From the NCBI GenBank assembly GCA_903845365.1, contig CAIMXI010000215.1, forward strand, positions 1-64,000: a stretch of DNA of 64,000 bases. The letters run 5' to 3'. Source of the stretch: an uncultured Geobacteraceae bacterium (GTDB taxonomy: Bacteria; Desulfobacterota; Desulfuromonadia; Geobacterales; Pseudopelobacteraceae). Under the pieces are notes generated by a model. The model was not told the DNA's origin. It searched no databases and saw nothing but the letters and a program-made list of their open reading frames with translations. Made by a program: the position numbers and the translations under genes. This document shows, in pieces, positions 53,474 through 62,573 of the stretch. The first letter of the stretch is position 1. Every line of letters starts with the position of its first letter.

Positions 53474-54811
53474 ATGCAGACGATCAAGCTCTACGAAATC
53501 CTCTCCTCTTACAATCGCTATTGGACTACTGGCGACATTGATGCCGGTATTAAGAGAGATATTCTCTCTAGCTGTCTCGGACAGCTTAACTCCAAGGAGG
53601 TTGTTGTCCTCAAAGGGGTTCGCCGATGTGGCAAATCAACTCTTATGGCTCAGGTGATTAGGGAGCTACTTGCCCGCAATGTGCAACCAACCTCGATCCT
53701 GCGGGTCAACCTGGAAGAGCCGCTGTTCTCTTCGGAGTACTCGGTAGAACTGCTGGAGCAGATCTATCGAACCTACCGTGAACGGGTGCAGCCAGAAGGG
53801 AAATGCTGGCTCTTCATGGATGAAGTGCAAAATGTACCTGGCTGGGAGAGCTGGGTAAGAGGTCGCAGTGAAACCGAGGATATTAAGTTTTTTGTTACCG
53901 GCTCATCATCACAAATGCTCTCTCGCGAGATCGGTACCAAACTGACCGGCAGGCATATGTCGTTTGAGGTCTTCCCGCTCTCGTTTCGTGAATTTATGCG
54001 GTTCGGGAATCTTGAAGTCAAGACCGAGCTTGATTATACGACCCGCAAAGCAGTCGTCAGAAAGTTGTTCACTGATTACCTGAAGTACGGCGGATTCCCG
54101 GAAGTGGTGCTGAGAGCATCAACTGATGATAAAGAGTTATTGCTCAAGAATTATTTCGAGGATATTCTCTACAGGGATATTGTCACACGCTACGAGATCA
54201 GAGATGTCTCCAATCTGCGTAATCTGGCGGTGTACTTGCTAACCAACGTTGCCAAACTAACCAGTATCACCAAGCTGAAGAAGAACTTCACAATCTCTCA
54301 GGACAAGACCGAAAATTATGTGTCAGCCATTATGGAAAGCTATCTGCTGTTTCAACTACAGATGTTCTCCTATTCGCTCAAGAGTACCATGCGGGCTGGG
54401 TTCAAGCCATATACCATCGATACAGGATTGCGCAACCGAATCGCCTTCGCATTTTCCGAAGATTTGGGCTGGCTGGTGGAAAACGTGGTATTCTGTCACC
54501 TGAAGCGGCAGCATGAGGAAATCTACTATCATACTAACGATGGCGATACTGACTTTGTGGTCAAGGAGGGGATGAAGATTACAAAGCGGATTCAAGTCTG
54601 GTATGACGATGTATCCGTAACCAGCGTACCGGATAGGGAGCTGGTCTGTTTTAATAAACCGTTGAAAGGGCATGAATCGGCAGAATCGATACTGGTGACC
54701 AACGACTATGAAGATATAATCGACACCGCTTGCGGTAGGGTTCAGTGCATTCCTGTGGTAAAATATTTAATGGGATTTGGCTTCAAGATTCCTGGCAGGT
54801 ATGTAATATGA
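53474..54811 (+). CDS. AAA ATPase with DUF4143-type C-terminal domain
   Basis: The 445-residue protein has an N-terminal AAA ATPase (Walker A GVRRCGKST, about 47-55; Walker B CWLFMDEVQNV) and a C-terminal DUF4143-like domain (about 215-400: YGGFPEVVLR, TVDTGLRN-like segment, nuclease-like DTDFVVKEG). The family is widespread and its role is poorly known. Here it heads a three-gene operon with an AbiEii-like gene. Promoter and inverted repeat lie just upstream. The next start overlaps its stop (ATGA). Confidence 0.88.
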   Translation: MQTIKLYEILSSYNRYWTTGDIDAGIKRDILSSCLGQLNSKEVVVLKGVRRCGKSTLMAQVIRELLARNVQPTSILRVNLEEPLFSSEYSVELLEQIYRTYRERVQPEGKCWLFMDEVQNVPGWESWVRGRSETEDIKFFVTGSSSQMLSREIGTKLTGRHMSFEVFPLSFREFMRFGNLEVKTELDYTTRKAVVRKLFTDYLKYGGFPEVVLRASTDDKELLLKNYFEDILYRDIVTRYEIRDVSNLRNLAVYLLTNVAKLTSITKLKKNFTISQDKTENYVSAIMESYLLFQLQMFSYSLKSTMRAGFKPYTIDTGLRNRIAFAFSEDLGWLVENVVFCHLKRQHEEIYYHTNDGDTDFVVKEGMKITKRIQVWYDDVSVTSVPDRELVCFNKPLKGHESAESILVTNDYEDIIDTACGRVQCIPVVKYLMGFGFKIPGRYVI

Positions 54812-55104
54812 CGGAAAATGAAAAAACTCTTTTTAAATCTCTCGCCGCAAAATATCTCTGGTGGGTGACGCCGGATGAAGCCATCAAACGCCCTGAACGT
54901 ATTGTCATTCAAGTTATGAATATTGGGGATTTTGCTGATGTGGTTGATGTTCTCGATGCCGTTGGTGAAGAGCAGGCAAGAGAGCTTCTCATACATGGAG
55001 AACCGGGGCAGTTTTCTCCCCGTTCGTGGCACTACTGGCATTATCGTCTGGGTCTTGCCGAGCCGGGATCTGTTCCACCAATGCCGATACGGAGGGTACG
55101 CTGA
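54808..55104 (+). CDS. Small protein of AbiEii-type pairs (DUF6922-like, antitoxin-like)
   Basis: The 98-residue protein (KYLWWVTPDEAIKRPERIV, MNIGDFADVVDVLD) resembles small proteins that precede AbiEii-like nucleotidyltransferases. They are presumed partner or antitoxin. No DNA-binding motif is plain. The ATG at 54808 overlaps the ATPase stop and its own stop overlaps the next start (TGATG), so the three genes are tightly coupled. Confidence 0.75.
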   Translation: MTENEKTLFKSLAAKYLWWVTPDEAIKRPERIVIQVMNIGDFADVVDVLDAVGEEQARELLIHGEPGQFSPRSWHYWHYRLGLAEPGSVPPMPIRRVR

Positions 55105-55805
55105 TGAATAAGTTTGAGCTGCATACGGAGATTCTTCCTCCCTCGCAAAAATGGGTGTGGCCTCAGTTGGAGCCTGTTCGGAAAAGGGGCTTTGTACTCT
55201 ATGGCGGGACAGCGGTTGCCCTGCGCCTCGGCCACCGCCAATCTGTTGATTTTGATTTCTTCTCAGATCAGCCGCTTGATAAATCAGGCTTTTTCAAAAT
55301 TCTACCGATGCTTGCCACAGCAACCGTTATTCAGGATGCGCCTGATTCGTTGGGCGTTCTTGTTCCGGTTAATATTGCGGGTGCCCCGGAATATGTCAAA
55401 CTCTCATTTTTTGGAAATATCGATAATGGTCGTGTAGGTGAACCCGAGGTGACGCCTGACGGGGTTATGGTTGTTGCGTCGCTTGCAGATATGATGGCGC
55501 ACAAACTGAAAGTCATTTTGCAATGTATTGAGGCGAAAGATTATCGCGACATTGCCGCCATGCTAAAAAATGGCATGGCGCTCGACGAAGGCCTCGCTGG
55601 TTCTCGTGCCCTTTTTGGCAAGGCATTTCAGCCGAGCGAGAGTCTAAAAGCATTGGTTTACTTTGAAGGTGGGGATCTTGATTCATTGTCTGCTGTCGAC
55701 CGGGCCGTTCTTGTATCCGCAGTAAAAACAGTCAAAAAAACTCCTCATTGTTCAATTCGCTCTAAGCGGCTGGTTGATGAATATTCTGCTGATGGGGCTG
55801 CTTGA
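55104..55805 (+). CDS. AbiEii/AbiGii-type nucleotidyltransferase (toxin-like)
   Basis: The 233-residue protein has the AbiEii-type core: LYGGTAVALRLGHRQSVDFDFF (GG...D-x-D-x-x-F, about 32-53) and MAHKLKVILQCIEAKDYRDIAAM (Lys and Asp of the helical part). AbiEii-like proteins are nucleotidyltransferases acting as toxins. The start at 55104 overlaps the upstream stop. It converges with the Ehr-like cluster, 90 bases away, with no terminator visible between. Confidence 0.88.
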   Translation: MNKFELHTEILPPSQKWVWPQLEPVRKRGFVLYGGTAVALRLGHRQSVDFDFFSDQPLDKSGFFKILPMLATATVIQDAPDSLGVLVPVNIAGAPEYVKLSFFGNIDNGRVGEPEVTPDGVMVVASLADMMAHKLKVILQCIEAKDYRDIAAMLKNGMALDEGLAGSRALFGKAFQPSESLKALVYFEGGDLDSLSAVDRAVLVSAVKTVKKTPHCSIRSKRLVDEYSADGAA

Positions 55806-55895
55806 AGTCGTAATTTAGTCAGACAAGTGGCGCATCACTTTCATAAAATTGAATGTACATCGTGCAGAAGTTATACTCTGGCACCCTCAATGTTT

Positions 55896-57416
55896 CTACA
55901 AATCAAAACCGCAGTACGACAGGTTGAAGCTTTTGTTGCAGAGTGGGAAGTCGGAAATCTGTTGATTGCGCAAGGCAAGACCCAAGCCGTTCCAGTTATG
56001 AAATGATGGATCAACTATCTTGTAACGTTCAAAACAGCCCCTGTCATCGGTCAAGGCTACATGACATATTTCACCGCGCCACCCTTCGGTAAGTGCAACC
56101 GCACAACGACCGGAAGCAATTCCCTTCGCTTGGTTCAGGTAACTGCCGCGCGGCAGATGGCGCACCTGTTCTTCGATAAAATCCAACGAGCGCTCAGCCT
56201 CCAGCCAGCGGAGCCGTGTGCGGGCGGCAACATCACAGGTGGTTGCAGTAACCACCGGTATCTGACTCATCCGGAAAATTCCGAACGGATGATCACGCCG
56301 TACATCGCGGTTCAGTCCGCACGCCCGGGCGGCAGGCCCAACAAGACCGATCTCTCGGGCGTCCTTCTCGGTGACAATGCCGACATCTTCGAGTCTTGCC
56401 ATGACCGATGGTGTATCCCAGAGTAAATTGACCGCTCCGGTCAGGTCTTCCCGCGCAGATTGCAGCCGATTGTGCAGTTCATCTGCAATTGAAGCGTCAC
56501 AATCGTAACCGATCCCACCCGGCCTGAGTAGGCCACGGCTAAAGCGACTGCCGCATAAGAGTGCGGTCATATTGAGAAAATCACCACGTATCCGGCCGCA
56601 GAACGATGCAGTCGGCAGGTAGCCGACATCGCCTGCAATTGCACCAAGATCCCCCGTATGATTGGCCAGTCGCTCAAGTTCCAGAGCGATGCCGCGAACC
56701 GTCTCGGCTCGTGGTGAAGCAAAAAAACCTCCCAGTGACTCCATATTCATGCAGTAGGCTTGAGCGTGACCGACCGTAGTGTCACCGGCGATCGTCTCAA
56801 TCTGGTGCATGGTTCGAGGGGTCGGAGCCCCTGTAAGTGCCCGTTCTATGCCGCGATGCTGAAAGCCAAGCGATATTTCCAGATGAAACACCTCTTCACC
56901 ATGACACTGAAAGCGAAAGTGTCCAGGCTCAATGACCCCCGCATGTACGGGACCTACCGCTACCTCATGAACTTCGTCACCTTCAACGTGGTAGAAATCC
57001 ATCACTGCCGGCAGTAAACCGCCGCCATCAGTGGTACTCCAGAAACTTTCTCCTACGCAGAGAGGCTTTTGAAAACGAACCGGCTTGAACCAGGGGTGCC
57101 CCTCCGGGCGAGTCAGGCACTGCTCAGCAATTTCCCGTTCAAAGAGATGCAGTTGTGGGCAGGCTGCAGCAAGCGAGGGGAATGATCGCCCGACAGTAGT
57201 GGCAATAATCCCGAGAGCACCGCTTCCTGCGCGGGCAGACATGATGCAGAACAGTGTCGCTCCGCCCGCATTCGGAACACCGAAATAGGAACAGACCCGC
57301 CATCCGGCTGAAACCGCATCCAGAACAGACTGAAAGAACATATCGTTATCCGGCATCGGTATCTCGCAACGCTGAAATGAAGTGCCGTTATAAAAATTTT
57401 TCATACCAAAACTCAT
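55896..57416 (-). CDS. NuoCD-like large subunit of a complex I/Ehr-type membrane complex
   Basis: The 506-residue protein fuses a NuoC-like N-terminal part (about 20-150; VEGDEVHEVAVGPVHAG) and a NuoD/HyfG-like part. It lacks the Ni-binding cysteine pairs of [NiFe] hydrogenases: where CGIC is expected it has IAGDTTVGHAQAYC (about 207-220), and the C-terminus is DFPLCNKSFNLSYCGFDL instead of DPCxxC. This fits Ehr complexes described in Geobacter and not a true hydrogenase. Its start overlaps the stop of the upstream NuoM-like gene by one base. No small subunit gene follows. Confidence 0.88.
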   Translation of the reverse strand: MSFGMKNFYNGTSFQRCEIPMPDNDMFFQSVLDAVSAGWRVCSYFGVPNAGGATLFCIMSARAGSGALGIIATTVGRSFPSLAAACPQLHLFEREIAEQCLTRPEGHPWFKPVRFQKPLCVGESFWSTTDGGGLLPAVMDFYHVEGDEVHEVAVGPVHAGVIEPGHFRFQCHGEEVFHLEISLGFQHRGIERALTGAPTPRTMHQIETIAGDTTVGHAQAYCMNMESLGGFFASPRAETVRGIALELERLANHTGDLGAIAGDVGYLPTASFCGRIRGDFLNMTALLCGSRFSRGLLRPGGIGYDCDASIADELHNRLQSAREDLTGAVNLLWDTPSVMARLEDVGIVTEKDAREIGLVGPAARACGLNRDVRRDHPFGIFRMSQIPVVTATTCDVAARTRLRWLEAERSLDFIEEQVRHLPRGSYLNQAKGIASGRCAVALTEGWRGEICHVALTDDRGCFERYKIVDPSFHNWNGLGLALRNQQISDFPLCNKSFNLSYCGFDL

Positions 57417-58846
57417 TAACGTTCCTCCAGAAGTGCGGATGCATCTCGCAGCAACGTCATAAGCGGCTCCGGTATCCAGATGCCAAGCAGAAATATCAGC
57501 AGCAGTAGAAACAGTGGTGGTCCGACTGTCCAGATCGAGTCGCGATAATCGGTTTTCTCGCTCTCTGCCGGAGCTTCACCCATTACCATCGGAAGAACGG
57601 TCAGCGCCATGCCGATAAAAATAACCGTCAGAGAAATCAGAAAAATCGCGCCTACCAGCATCCGTCCCTGAATGAAGGCGCTGCTGACAATGGTAAATTC
57701 GCTGATAAACGGGGCAAACGGGGGTGACCCGCTGATGGCGATGAACCCCGCCAAAAAAAGTCCTCCCGACCAGGGGAGGCGTCTCAGAGCGCCCCGCACA
57801 TGATCGGTACTTTTGCTGTTGTAGGAGCGGTGGATGTTTCCGGAAGAGAGAAATAACACCCCCTTGGTCAGACTGTTGGCAAGAGCGTGGAACAGTACGC
57901 CAAAAATTGCCCTGCCACCAAGCCCGAGCGCTACCGCCATTATGCCGACATGCTCAACGCTTGAGTACGCGAGCATCCTCTTGAAATCAGGCTGTCTGGC
58001 CATAAATATCGCTGCGACAATCATTGAAAACAGCCCCATGACAATCAGGGCATTTTGAAAAAAATCTATCTCTTTGGTTGCCAGACAGAGTTGATAAACA
58101 CGAACGAGTGCCAGAAAGGCCAGATTGACCAGGCCGCCTGACAGCAGAGCCCCGACCAGACCTGGAGCCTCGCCGTAAGCGTCCGGTTTCCATGTATGGA
58201 GCGGTGCCAACCCCATCTTTGTACCAAAACCGACCAGCAGAAAAACAAATGCGGCATGAACCCATCCGGACGATAGCTTTCCGGCATCCCGAATCAGATC
58301 ATCAAGCAGCAGAGACGGTTCCACCCGGGCAACTATCGTAGAGTAAGCCAGGAAATAAAGACCGATTAGCGCCAAAGCGACACCGACAGAGCAGATCAGC
58401 AGATATTTCCAGGTAGCCTCAATCGAGTGGGCGTTGCGGTTAAAATAGATCAGTGGAGCCATGGATATGGTTGTGGTTTCGAGTGCCACCCACATTAGTC
58501 CAAGATGGTGGGTGATCGTAACCAGTGAGGCCGCCGAAAGGCAGACGAGAATTCCTACGCAGAGCACACGGTTGGAGCGTTCGAGACGATAATAAAGGTA
58601 GCCGATAGAGTAGAGTGCACAGGTAAAAAAAAGGATGCTGGTACTCAAAAGCACGATTTTTCCAAGTGGATCCAGGTTAAACCAGCCATCGGGTGATTCG
58701 GGCGGGGTGAACGACAGGAGCTGAATGGTGAGAGCCAGATGTGCAAAAGCAAAGAGCGCCAGTATCTTTGGGCGCAGACGATCATTTGGGATCAGCCAGT
58801 TTACAGCAGCTCCGACCAGCGGGAGGATTATCAGGGCAGCAAACAT
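57416..58846 (-). CDS. NuoM/HyfF-like proton-translocating membrane subunit
   Basis: The 476-residue protein has about 14 membrane helices and the antiporter-like core (GLAPLHTWKPDAYGEAPG, MLAYSSVEHVGIMAVALG, GSPPFAPFISEF). Length fits HyfF. GAGGAG eight bases before the ATG, overlapping the previous stop. It would move protons or sodium ions. Third-last in the five-gene operon. Confidence 0.9.
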   Translation of the reverse strand: MFAALIILPLVGAAVNWLIPNDRLRPKILALFAFAHLALTIQLLSFTPPESPDGWFNLDPLGKIVLLSTSILFFTCALYSIGYLYYRLERSNRVLCVGILVCLSAASLVTITHHLGLMWVALETTTISMAPLIYFNRNAHSIEATWKYLLICSVGVALALIGLYFLAYSTIVARVEPSLLLDDLIRDAGKLSSGWVHAAFVFLLVGFGTKMGLAPLHTWKPDAYGEAPGLVGALLSGGLVNLAFLALVRVYQLCLATKEIDFFQNALIVMGLFSMIVAAIFMARQPDFKRMLAYSSVEHVGIMAVALGLGGRAIFGVLFHALANSLTKGVLFLSSGNIHRSYNSKSTDHVRGALRRLPWSGGLFLAGFIAISGSPPFAPFISEFTIVSSAFIQGRMLVGAIFLISLTVIFIGMALTVLPMVMGEAPAESEKTDYRDSIWTVGPPLFLLLLIFLLGIWIPEPLMTLLRDASALLEER

Positions 58847-58850
58847 TAAA

Positions 58851-59492
58851 CTACTCCTCTTTCAGAGAGGTCAGAAGCGAGGTATCGAGCGAAGAGAATT
58901 CACGGCTGATCTGGTTCATAACAATCCCCATGACGAAGGTGCCGACCAGCAGGTCGAGCAGCGCCCCCGCTTCAACCATGATCGGCATCGCATCCGCCAG
59001 CAGCAGGCCGAAGATGAATATGCCATTCTCCATGACAAGATAGCCGATCACCTGCGAAATCGCTTTGCGGCGCGTTGTTAGCACCAGAAACCCGGTCATC
59101 AGTGTGGCGATTGATGCCGGGACAAACATGTAATACTGATGTTCGGGGAGCATCGGCAGCTTGCCGGCAAAACCAAACGAGAGAGCCGCAAAGATTGCAC
59201 CAAGCAGCAACGTCGGGACATACCCGAGAAACGGTTCAAACTCGCGTTTGATCTCAGCAGAACGGACGGCGCGGCTGAGCAGCATCGGAATCACAAACCC
59301 TTTAACAGCAATTATGACAATTGTAATTCCGACCAGATGCCAGGAAAAGGGATGCATCAGGCCGGGCAGAATCCCGAGGATGACCCCTTGAACCGCCACC
59401 GCACGGATAGAAAAAATCAGACGACTGGTGCCGAGCGAGATAAAGTTTATCAGCAGTACCAGAACGAGAAGTTGATCGGCCAAAGAAAACAT
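58851..59492 (-). CDS. HyfE-like membrane subunit
   Basis: With the ATG at 59492 (AGGTGA upstream, overlapping the NuoH-like stop) the protein has 213 residues and about six to seven helices, similar to HyfE, which carries a NuoK-like part (MENGIFIFGLLLADA). An in-frame start 54 bases upstream would lie within the NuoH-like gene and is rejected. Confidence 0.87.
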   Translation of the reverse strand: MFSLADQLLVLVLLINFISLGTSRLIFSIRAVAVQGVILGILPGLMHPFSWHLVGITIVIIAVKGFVIPMLLSRAVRSAEIKREFEPFLGYVPTLLLGAIFAALSFGFAGKLPMLPEHQYYMFVPASIATLMTGFLVLTTRRKAISQVIGYLVMENGIFIFGLLLADAMPIMVEAGALLDLLVGTFVMGIVMNQISREFSSLDTSLLTSLKEE

Positions 59493-59496
59493 TGCA

Positions 59497-60405
59497 TCAC
59501 CTGATGACGAGTAGAGTGGAAAATGCTGCGAGAATAGAGGCTGCAACCAGCAGTTGTGGAATACGAATCAGGCGCAGACGTGCCATAACTGATTCTACAA
59601 TCCCGATGACAACGGCCAGCTCCAGCATGGAAATAATGAAAAGTCCCCAGTCTAGCAGCGGATTACCGGTCGCATACGGTAGAGCCAGATGGATAAAAAA
59701 AGCTCCAAGCACAAACAGCTTGAGCGCTGCGGCATACTGAATGAGGCCAAAAGCGGGACCACTGTGATCAAGCACCATAACTTCGTGGATCATGGTCAGT
59801 TCCAGATGCGTGTTCGGATCATCGAACGGAATACGGCAGTTTTCTACCAGCAGGACGATAAACATCCCACCTATCAGGAGCAGTAGCGCAGCGCCGGTAT
59901 CCAGCCAGACACCCAAGCTGATGTTTATAAGCATCGGGGATAGGGAAAATTTACCGGAGAGACGCGACAGGGTGATCAGCGCAAAAAAGAGGGTTGGCTC
60001 GGCAAGGCAGGAGTAGGTAGCCTCACGGGCAGAGCCCATCCCTTCAAAACTTGAACCGGTGTCCAGAGCCGCCGACATTGTAAAAAAACGCCCCAGTGCG
60101 AACAGATAGGCGTAGAGAATCATGTCGCCATCAAAAGAGACCGGAGCCGGATGTGCGCCAAACGGAACAAGCAGTGCTGCAACCGCAGTAGTTGCGAGCG
60201 CGACAATCGGACCGGCACGAAACAGCCAGGTGGTAGTAGTACTGAAGACCGTACCTTTCTGCAGAAGGCGGATAATATCGTAATACGGCTGCAAAAACGG
60301 CGCGCCAACCCTGCCGGCAAAAGCGGCTTTCGTTTTGCCGATCACTCCTAACAGCAGCGGCGGCATGGTGAGTGCCAGAAATATGTGGATGATGCTGTTT
60401 GTCAT
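59497..60405 (-). CDS. NuoH/HyfC-like membrane subunit
   Basis: The 302-residue protein has eight helices and the NuoH signature PYYDIIRLLQKG at residues about 41-52 and FDDPNTHLELTMIHEVMVLD. NuoH anchors the soluble arm. The start at 60405 has GGGAG upstream. It lies 19 bases after the NuoL-like gene. Confidence 0.9.
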   Translation of the reverse strand: MTNSIIHIFLALTMPPLLLGVIGKTKAAFAGRVGAPFLQPYYDIIRLLQKGTVFSTTTTWLFRAGPIVALATTAVAALLVPFGAHPAPVSFDGDMILYAYLFALGRFFTMSAALDTGSSFEGMGSAREATYSCLAEPTLFFALITLSRLSGKFSLSPMLINISLGVWLDTGAALLLLIGGMFIVLLVENCRIPFDDPNTHLELTMIHEVMVLDHSGPAFGLIQYAAALKLFVLGAFFIHLALPYATGNPLLDWGLFIISMLELAVVIGIVESVMARLRLIRIPQLLVAASILAAFSTLLVIR

Positions 60406-60424
60406 GGTCGCTCCCAGGAAAACA

Positions 60425-62422
60425 TCAGTTTGCCCAAAGCATCAGAATAAAAAGCGTGGCAAATATATAGAGCATATAAACCTGCATCAAACCATGCTGC
60501 AGGCGATGCAGAAAAACGAAGAGAATTCCGGCTCCGTTAAAAAGCGGAGCAATCAGCCGCTCCAGTAAGGTTTCTGTCGGCGCATCTATACAGCGTGACC
60601 GGACGGGGAAAAGGCCATCCAAATCCGGGCGTTCGACCCGTTGGCGCATAATACCATTGAATACAGAAACAGCAAGCTCGGAAAATGATGAACCGTTGTA
60701 CTGCATGCGCGATGTTCTCCGCTGATAGCCGCATCCCCAGGTTGAAGTGATTGAGACCAGATTCTTCCCCATTCGCCATTTCCAGAGCAGCGCAGCGACC
60801 ACGACAGCCGACAACAGGAGCAGCGAAGCCTGAGAGAGTCGCCACAGAATGGCACCAAACTCTGCGGAAACATCAGTTGAAATCATCTCCGGATAAATCG
60901 CCTCAATTGCCGGGGAAACAAGACGGAGAGCCTGTTGGGGGACAACTCCGATCAGCAGGCAGAGCATAGCAAAAACCGCCATCGGCACCAGCATTGTCAT
61001 CCCGGCTTCGTGAGGATGAGCCGTTGAGGGAATTCTGGGAGTACCGAGAAACACCGAACTATAAAGCTTGGTAAAGGCCACGACGGCCAGGCCGCCAACC
61101 AGCGCCAGCAGTGGTGCAAGGAGCACCAGGGAGACCAGGCTCACTTCTTTTATCTGTCTGAAAAAGCCAAGATAGAGCAGAAATTCGCTGACGAAACCGT
61201 TCAGTGGTGGAATCCCGCAGATAGCGACCGTTCCGATAAAAAAAAACGCTGCAACCCTTGGCATCCCTTTGCCAAGTCCGCCCATCAGATTCATCTCACG
61301 CGTTCCAGTGGCGTGAATAATGACTCCGGAGCCGAGAAACAGTAACGGTTTGAATAAGCTGTGATTGAGAATGTGGAGCAGTGCGCCTGTCATTCCAAGA
61401 TACATCAGTGTGGTATTGTGACTGGAGAGTCCCAGCATGGAAACACCGAGGCCGGTAGTTATAATGCCAATGTTCTCAATACTGCTACAGGCCAGCAGAC
61501 GTTTCATATCCCGCTGTGCAACAGCAAATGTAATCCCCAGCAGCGCCGAAGTGATGCCGCAGACAGTCAGAATGGCCCCCCAGAGCAGTGGTGGATCGTG
61601 AAAAAAAGTCAGTGTACGGAAGATCCCGTACAGTCCCATTTTCAACATGACACCTGACATCACCGCCGACACGTGACTTGGAGCGTTGGCATGAGCCGAG
61701 GGGAGCCAGACGTGAAACGGCATAATCCCGGCTTTTGCGCCAAAACCGATAAAAGCGGCAAGTGCCATAATTGCGGCAGAAGGAGATAGAGCCGAGAGGG
61801 AGCCGGCCGCCGGAAGTGTAAATGAGCCGGTCTCGGCAGCCAGCAGCGAAAAAAAGACAAACAGCGCCGCTGTACCGATGTGAGTTGCAATGAGATAAAC
61901 GATTCCGGCGCGCCTGACCTCCTCCCGTTCATGCTCCGTAACCAGCAGGAAATAAGCGGATAGCGCCATAACTTCCCACACCATGATAAAAAAGACTCCG
62001 TTACGAGCGGTGAGAAGAATAGCCATGGACGAGGCCAGCAGACCAGAGAAAAAGGTAAGGCCGCGTTCGGTGGTGCGATGTTCGGCAGCGGGCCAATAGC
62101 CAACCGCAAAGAGAGAGGCGGCAGCGGACACAAGAAAAACAGGAAGGAGGAAAAAGGCAGAAAACGGGTCAATAACAAGTTCGCAAGAGCCGAACGGAAG
62201 GTTCCACTGGAGCTGATAGGTTGTTGTCGTATTACTGAAGAGCATCTGCAGAGCGGCCGTAACACCGGCCAATCCCGCAAGGATGGATGTAACTGCAGCA
62301 ATAATCTGCCCAATCCCCGTTTTTTGCAGGATCAGGCCGGGAATTCCGGAACAGCCGAGTGCAACTGCAGCAATCAGCGCCACGAGTGCAGGGTCATATA
62401 TGCCCTGCAGTGACAAATTCAT
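60425..62422 (-). CDS. NuoL/HyfB-like proton-translocating membrane subunit
   Basis: The 665-residue protein has about 16 membrane helices. The antiporter core is clear: GIMPFHVWLPSAHANAPSHVSA, LACSSIENIGIITTGLGVSM, HSLFKPLLFLGSG. The last 130 residues match HyfB-type C-termini. AAGGAG eight bases before the ATG. First gene of the operon; no promoter is obvious in the 150-bp gap upstream, which holds a palindromic repeat. Confidence 0.9.
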   Translation of the reverse strand: MNLSLQGIYDPALVALIAAVALGCSGIPGLILQKTGIGQIIAAVTSILAGLAGVTAALQMLFSNTTTTYQLQWNLPFGSCELVIDPFSAFFLLPVFLVSAAASLFAVGYWPAAEHRTTERGLTFFSGLLASSMAILLTARNGVFFIMVWEVMALSAYFLLVTEHEREEVRRAGIVYLIATHIGTAALFVFFSLLAAETGSFTLPAAGSLSALSPSAAIMALAAFIGFGAKAGIMPFHVWLPSAHANAPSHVSAVMSGVMLKMGLYGIFRTLTFFHDPPLLWGAILTVCGITSALLGITFAVAQRDMKRLLACSSIENIGIITTGLGVSMLGLSSHNTTLMYLGMTGALLHILNHSLFKPLLFLGSGVIIHATGTREMNLMGGLGKGMPRVAAFFFIGTVAICGIPPLNGFVSEFLLYLGFFRQIKEVSLVSLVLLAPLLALVGGLAVVAFTKLYSSVFLGTPRIPSTAHPHEAGMTMLVPMAVFAMLCLLIGVVPQQALRLVSPAIEAIYPEMISTDVSAEFGAILWRLSQASLLLLSAVVVAALLWKWRMGKNLVSITSTWGCGYQRRTSRMQYNGSSFSELAVSVFNGIMRQRVERPDLDGLFPVRSRCIDAPTETLLERLIAPLFNGAGILFVFLHRLQHGLMQVYMLYIFATLFILMLWAN

Positions 62423-62498
62423 GCGAAAGGCTCCTTGAAACTTTCAGTACGAGCCAGGTAGAGAGCCGGTTGTTAAAAAATCATCGTACTTCTGATTT

Positions 62499-62527
62499 CT
62501 CGTTCCCACGCGCTGCGTGGGAACGAG
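62499..62527. repeat. 29-bp perfect palindrome, CTCGTTCC...GGAACGAG family
   Basis: Perfect arms CTCGTTCCCACGC and GCGTGGGAACGAG around a GCT loop, in the gap between the Skp-like gene and the NuoL-like gene. It is the cleanest of three copies (others at 11278 and 13894), 49 kb from them. Confidence 0.88.
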
Positions 62528-62573
62528 GGCGGACGTTAATAATAATTATATTGCATGGATCACACATGGGACG

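What the first reader, a model, noticed from the sequence alone, without database searches (positions are those of the whole stretch)
55896..62422. Ehr-like complex with no Ni ligands and no NuoB-like small subunit in the cluster
Seen: five genes (NuoL, NuoH, HyfE, NuoM and NuoCD types). The large subunit lacks both CxxC pairs. The gene after it is on the opposite strand and belongs to a toxin-like operon, so the Fe-S small subunit expected near the large subunit is absent. Either the small subunit is elsewhere, or it was lost when the toxin-like operon arrived, or the complex works without it.
Basis: partly seen in the sequence, partly recalled or inferred. Interest (0 to 1): 0.6.

Follow-up and report, generated by a model that had tools for sequence, protein, structure and literature searches.

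The report
Split Ehr operon; small subunit elsewhere
A known kind of hydrogenase-like membrane complex seems to lack its iron-sulphur small subunit, but the gene is intact on another contig of the same genome, because the operon was broken exactly between the large- and small-subunit genes; the complex itself is ordinary.

Summary
Window 55896-62422(-) is a five-gene Ehr operon (HyfB-, HyfC/NuoH-, HyfE- and HyfF-like genes, then ehrL). EhrL has no CxxC, and no NuoB-like gene follows it. The genome's only ehrS (260 aa, 2x[4Fe-4S] + NuoB domain, all 12 cysteines) is on contig C43:45383-46165(-). In most same-genus relatives ehrS starts 11-19 nt after the ehrL stop. Here homology on the ehrL side ends 2 nt after its stop, and on the ehrS side begins 9 nt before its ATG. 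ehrS now sits 31 nt behind a radical-SAM gene. On its other side a 1.48-kb deletion removed a GAPDH-like gene, leaving ehrS beside its ancestral cupin neighbour. EhrS is under purifying selection, and ehrL and ehrS come and go together across 58 genomes. The complex is most likely a normal Ehr assembled in trans. Side finding: the ehrL|ehrS junction is interrupted by 0.76 kb or more in 5 of 34 genomes of the genus, four with toxin-type genes beside ehrL; in two, the last ~77 nt of ehrL are duplicated beyond inserted DNA.

The parts
55896..57416 (-). ehrL, HycE/NuoCD-type large subunit, 506 aa, no Ni-binding CxxC
   Evidence: PF00346 E 1.9e-37; best PDB match HycE 7z0s_E; ligand positions A210, T213, S500, G503
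57416..58846 (-). HyfF/NuoM-type antiporter-like membrane subunit, 476 aa
   Evidence: PF00361; NCBIfam hydrogenase 4 subunit F, below that model's cut-off
58851..59492 (-). HyfE-type membrane subunit, 213 aa from the start shared with homologues
   Evidence: PF00420 weak (below cut-off); NCBIfam hydrogenase 4 membrane subunit E 8.4e-20; start from homologues
59497..60405 (-). HyfC/NuoH-type membrane subunit, 302 aa
   Evidence: PF00146 E 2.4e-32
60425..62422 (-). HyfB/NuoL-type antiporter-like membrane subunit, 665 aa
   Evidence: PF00361; NCBIfam hydrogenase 4 subunit B E 1.3e-163, below that model's cut-off
55894..55895 (.). break point: homology to relatives ends 2 nt after the ehrL stop codon; in relatives ehrS follows here, in this genome ehrS is on C43:45383-46165(-), outside the window
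55026..55805 (+). AbiEii-type nucleotidyltransferase at the break, convergent with ehrL (ORF from its first start codon; the true start is probably downstream)
   Evidence: PF08843 E 8.3e-13; PADLOC AbiEii E 3.8e-5
54745..55104 (+). 119-aa ORF, probable small partner of the AbiEii-type gene
   Evidence: overlaps the AbiEii ORF; no Pfam or PADLOC match
53474..54811 (+). AAA_14/DUF4143 ATPase next to the toxin-like pair
   Evidence: PF13173, PF13635; PADLOC candidate PDC-S01

Best explanation
This is an ordinary Ehr (Ech-hydrogenase-related) complex whose operon was cut by a genome rearrangement exactly between ehrL and ehrS. The five-gene part stayed together in the window. ehrS stayed with its ancestral downstream neighbour on what is now contig C43, kept its own ribosome-binding site, and came to lie 31 nt behind a radical-SAM gene. 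Shown: an intact, single, selected ehrS in trans, and ehrL-ehrS adjacency in most relatives. Inferred: EhrS is made (from its own or the radical-SAM promoter), assembles with EhrL and the membrane subunits, and passes electrons through its two ferredoxin-type clusters and the NuoB-type cluster to the modified, Ni-free EhrL site, driving ion pumping by the antiporter-like subunits. The substrate at the EhrL site is unknown for Ehr complexes in general.
For: Only one ehrS-type protein in the genome, 260 aa, with all 8 ferredoxin-type and 4 NuoB-type cysteines. Best relatives of it (80-91% identity in the genus) mostly lie 11-19 nt after ehrL. Break within the short spacer, both genes whole, inherited GGAGCCTGT ribosome-binding site kept. 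ehrS still beside the ancestral cupin gene after a 1.48-kb deletion of the GAPDH-like gene. dN/dS of EhrS 0.060 and 0.100 against the two nearest relatives, EhrL 0.059 and 0.071. ehrL and ehrS both present in 52 and both absent in 4 of 58 genomes; the 2 exceptions have the ehrL contig ending first.
Against: No expression, protein or assembly data. The genome is a 511-contig draft, so the physical distance between the halves is unknown. Selection was measured over the whole divergence from G030/G031, most of which may predate the split.
Confidence: 0.88

Rival explanations
1. Assembly artefact: ehrL and ehrS are adjacent in the real genome and the draft contigs are mis-joined.
For: Draft of 511 contigs with 3.1% contamination; no canonical GAPDH found in it either, so parts are missing.
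Against: No repeat lies at either junction. The breaks fall between whole genes, in a 12-nt spacer and a 31-nt spacer. Both contigs diverge by similar amounts from G030 and G031. A separate deletion scar lies beside ehrS. Relatives G016, G006, G017 and G028 are interrupted at the same junction.
Confidence: 0.08
2. The toxin-like module (AbiEii-type gene, 119-aa ORF, DUF4143 ATPase) inserted at the ehrL-ehrS junction and so caused the split, followed by further rearrangement. This is a claim about cause and is compatible with the best explanation.
For: The module lies at the break. Four of five interrupted junctions in the genus have a toxin-type gene beside ehrL: AbiEii here, PIN/Phd in G016, ParE with a Phd-type antitoxin in G028 (plus PIN/Phd before ehrS), Fic in G017. 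Two carry a copy of the last ~77 nt of ehrL beyond inserted DNA.
Against: No second copy of the ehrL 3' end in this genome, and ehrS is not on the far side of the module within the 55 kb held. No recombinase was found beside the modules inspected. The frequency of toxin modules at other intergenic sites was not measured.
Confidence: 0.4
3. The complex works without a small subunit, or EhrS has been lost and replaced by another NuoB-type protein.
For: No small-subunit gene in the cluster.
Against: Intact, selected ehrS in the genome; co-occurrence of ehrL and ehrS.
Confidence: 0.03

Closest known systems
Ehr (Ech-hydrogenase-related) complex of Geobacter sulfurreducens, GSU0739-45, with EhrA-1, EhrC, EhrL and EhrS named (PMC7894505)
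   Same: Same kinds of subunit: NuoL-like, HyfE-like, large and small subunits; membrane complex related to Ech hydrogenases; large subunit without Ni ligands (CxxC loss stated for Ehr in PMC10284858).
   Different: Here ehrS is not in the cluster but on another contig. Direct sequence comparison with GSU0739-45 was not possible because that record was not held.
Formate hydrogenlyase / hydrogenase-4 (HycE, HycG; PDB 7z0s)
   Same: Best solved relatives of both EhrL (E 2.7e-42) and EhrS (E 2.9e-30); membrane subunits match hydrogenase-4 models.
   Different: Both Ni-binding CxxC pairs are replaced; scores fall below the curated hydrogenase-4 cut-offs.
Respiratory complex I (NuoD/NuoB)
   Same: Homologous core subunits.
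   Different: No NADH module in the cluster; the NuoD quinone-site His (THG) and Tyr (DRLDYL) are Ile and Gly in all 81 Ehr large subunits. The genome has a separate NuoB/C/D locus.

Membership tests
Ehr complex | Group-4-hydrogenase-like large subunit lacking the CxxC motifs of the [NiFe] site | tested here: met
   No CxxC; A210/T213 and S500/G503 at the ligand positions
Ehr complex | NuoB/HycG-type Fe-S small subunit (EhrS) | tested here: met
   Present and intact in the genome, but in trans
Ehr complex | Antiporter-like and NuoH-like membrane subunits | tested here: met
   HyfB-, HyfF-, HyfE- and NuoH/HyfC-type genes in one operon
Ehr complex | ehrS directly after ehrL (usual in the genus, not treated as defining) | tested here: not met
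   ehrS on C43; adjacent in 25 of 34 same-genus genomes
Ehr complex | Redox-driven ion pumping without H2 activity | not testable with these tools
   Function of Ehr complexes is unknown (PMC10284858)
Group 4 [NiFe] hydrogenase | Two CxxC pairs binding Ni-Fe | tested here: not met
Respiratory complex I | Quinone-site His and Tyr of NuoD | tested here: not met
   Ile and Gly instead; separate NuoB/C/D locus in the genome

The most novel reading that the evidence does not exclude
The 3' end of ehrL is a recurrent integration site for small toxin-type modules in this genus. Elements insert within a few nt after the ehrL stop, sometimes bringing their own copy of the last ~77 nt of ehrL (G017, G028), and repeatedly separate the small subunit from its operon, leaving the complex to assemble in trans.
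Probability: 0.25. Interest if true: 0.45.

Novelty: new member of a known kind. Interest (0 to 1): 0.25.

Why it matters
It shows that a subunit gene missing from a cluster need not mean a reduced complex. It gives a natural split-operon case in which the large and small subunits of an Ehr complex are encoded apart, useful for asking how their dosage is balanced. It also points to the ehrL-ehrS junction as a place where such operons are repeatedly interrupted.

Tried and rejected
A second hydrogenase-type complex as the source of a borrowed small subunit was rejected: apart from EhrL, the only related large subunit found in this genome is NuoD. The 36%-identical complex near ehr in G031 was meant as a [NiFe] control but also lacks the CxxC pairs. 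Integron attC identity of a ~70-bp palindromic repeat near the duplicated ehrL ends was tested: copies are dispersed, intI loci gave only weak partial matches, and the single-strand folds are not better than shuffled sequence, so it is left as an unexplained dispersed repeat. The G. sulfurreducens record was not held. Structure prediction was not run because single-chain models could not test L-S association.

Full report
Observation. The five genes at 55896-62422(-) are as described: HyfB/NuoL-, NuoH/HyfC-, HyfE- and HyfF/NuoM-type membrane subunits followed by a HycE/NuoCD-type large subunit. The best solved relative of the large subunit is HycE of formate hydrogenlyase (7z0s_E, E 2.7e-42), then Mbh and complex I subunit 4. 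No CxxC occurs in it. At the HycE ligand positions it has A210, T213, S500 and G503, inside motifs (E-T-x-A-G-D-T-T and D-F-P-L-C-N-K-S-F-N-L-S-Y-C-G) that are nearly invariant in 81 Ehr large subunits. The complex I quinone-site His and Tyr are Ile and Gly in all 81. The next gene is an AbiEii-type nucleotidyltransferase on the other strand, with a 119-aa ORF and a DUF4143 ATPase.

The small subunit exists. PF01058 finds four proteins in the genome: complex I NuoB, two NiFe-hydrogenase small subunits, and a 260-aa protein with two ferredoxin-type 4Fe-4S motifs and a NuoB domain on contig C43:45383-46165(-). That last protein is ehrS: its relatives in the same genus (76-91% identical) mostly start 11-19 nt after the ehrL stop. 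All eight ferredoxin-type and four NuoB-type cysteines are present.

The break. Relatives such as G030 and G031 carry ehrL, ehrS, a GAPDH-like gene and, on the other strand, a cupin gene (families). In this genome homology on the ehrL side stops 2 nt after its stop codon, and on the ehrS side it resumes 9 nt before its ATG, so the cut lies within the short spacer and both genes are whole. ehrS still lies beside the ancestral cupin gene. The GAPDH-like gene between them is gone by a clean 1.48-kb deletion, and the last nine residues of this EhrS (GSADPARPK) are read from the out-of-frame remnant of that gene's 3' end. Upstream, ehrS now follows a radical-SAM gene by 31 nt and keeps the inherited GGAGCCTGT ribosome-binding site. 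The radical-SAM gene lies at an unrelated place in G031 and G030. The other side of the ehr operon is also rearranged relative to G031. No repeat lies at either junction, and both contigs diverge by similar amounts from G030 and G031, so a mis-join or a contaminant contig is unlikely, though not excluded.

Function in trans. dN/dS of EhrS against the two nearest relatives is 0.060 and 0.100, of EhrL 0.059 and 0.071; relative-rate counts give no significant acceleration of EhrS here (11 vs 4 and 10 vs 8). Across 58 genomes ehrL and ehrS are both present in 52 and both absent in 4; in the two exceptions, G017 and G056, the ehrL contig ends before ehrS would be reached (P = 3.5e-5, not corrected for shared ancestry). 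Co-occurrence and selection argue that EhrS is still a required partner. The electron path (ferredoxin-type clusters to NuoB-type cluster to the Ni-free EhrL site, coupled to the antiporter-like subunits) is inferred from homology; the reaction of Ehr complexes is unknown (PMC10284858). In G. sulfurreducens, Ehr subunits are abundant on formate, and a link to formate dehydrogenase has been proposed (PMC7894505; for other lineages PMC6349859).

The junction in relatives. Of 34 same-genus genomes with ehrL, 25 have ehrS within 30 nt, four have 62-119 nt, and five are interrupted by 0.76 kb or more: G016 (PIN/Phd), G006 (DUF1275), G017 (Fic and more), G028 (ParE with a Phd-type antitoxin next to ehrL; PIN/Phd before ehrS) and this genome (AbiEii). 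The foreign DNA begins within a few nt of the ehrL stop. Elsewhere in the order ehrS is also separated (Geobacter sp. AOG1 3.6 kb, Geomobilimonas luticola 2.8 kb; the family f2 genomes have it on another contig, in G037 beside mobA and mobB). By contrast only one of 80 loci shows an insert over 1 kb at another detected ehr junction. In G017 and G028 the last ~77 nt of ehrL recur beyond inserted DNA, starting at about the same base; the copies are not identical to the resident ehrL end. Such a copy is what site-specific integration at a gene's 3' end would leave, but no recombinase was found next to it and this genome has no second copy. An alternative is that the last complex gene of the operon is simply the one that can be separated at least cost.

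Verdict. The remaining interest lies in the recurrent interruption of the ehrL-ehrS junction.

Noticed in passing
L070:4512-4590 (G017); L066:940-1019 (G028): Copies of the last ~77 nt of ehrL, in the same direction as ehrL, lie beyond inserted DNA at the ehrL-ehrS junction and start at about the same base in both genomes.
   Followed up: partly
L181-L199 (G028, G017, G016, G031, G014, G006) and G000:C396:8970-9021: A dispersed ~70-bp palindromic repeat (consensus about GATCACCGGTTCACGCGCGCGCGTGAACCGGTCAACAACGAGTT) with partly complementary variable ends, attC-like in outline but not clustered at integron integrases; its nature is unexplained.
   Followed up: partly
G000, whole genome: No GAPDH C-terminal domain (PF02800) match anywhere in this draft, although all five tested relatives and all 14 control genomes have one; probably an assembly gap.
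   Followed up: no
L166:13461-15330 (G031:C26:268460-270291): A second Ehr-like large and small subunit pair, also without CxxC, about 10 kb from ehr in G031 and present in several relatives, but not found in the window's genome.
   Followed up: partly
L082 (G037:C89): In a family f2 genome the detached ehrS lies next to mobA and mobB, a different neighbourhood from the one in the window's genome, so separation of ehrS has probably happened more than once.
   Followed up: partly
window 62482-62529: A short REP-like palindrome upstream of the ehr operon (CGTTCCCACGCAGCGCGTGGGAACG), repeated across the genome, close to the right-hand synteny break.
   Followed up: no
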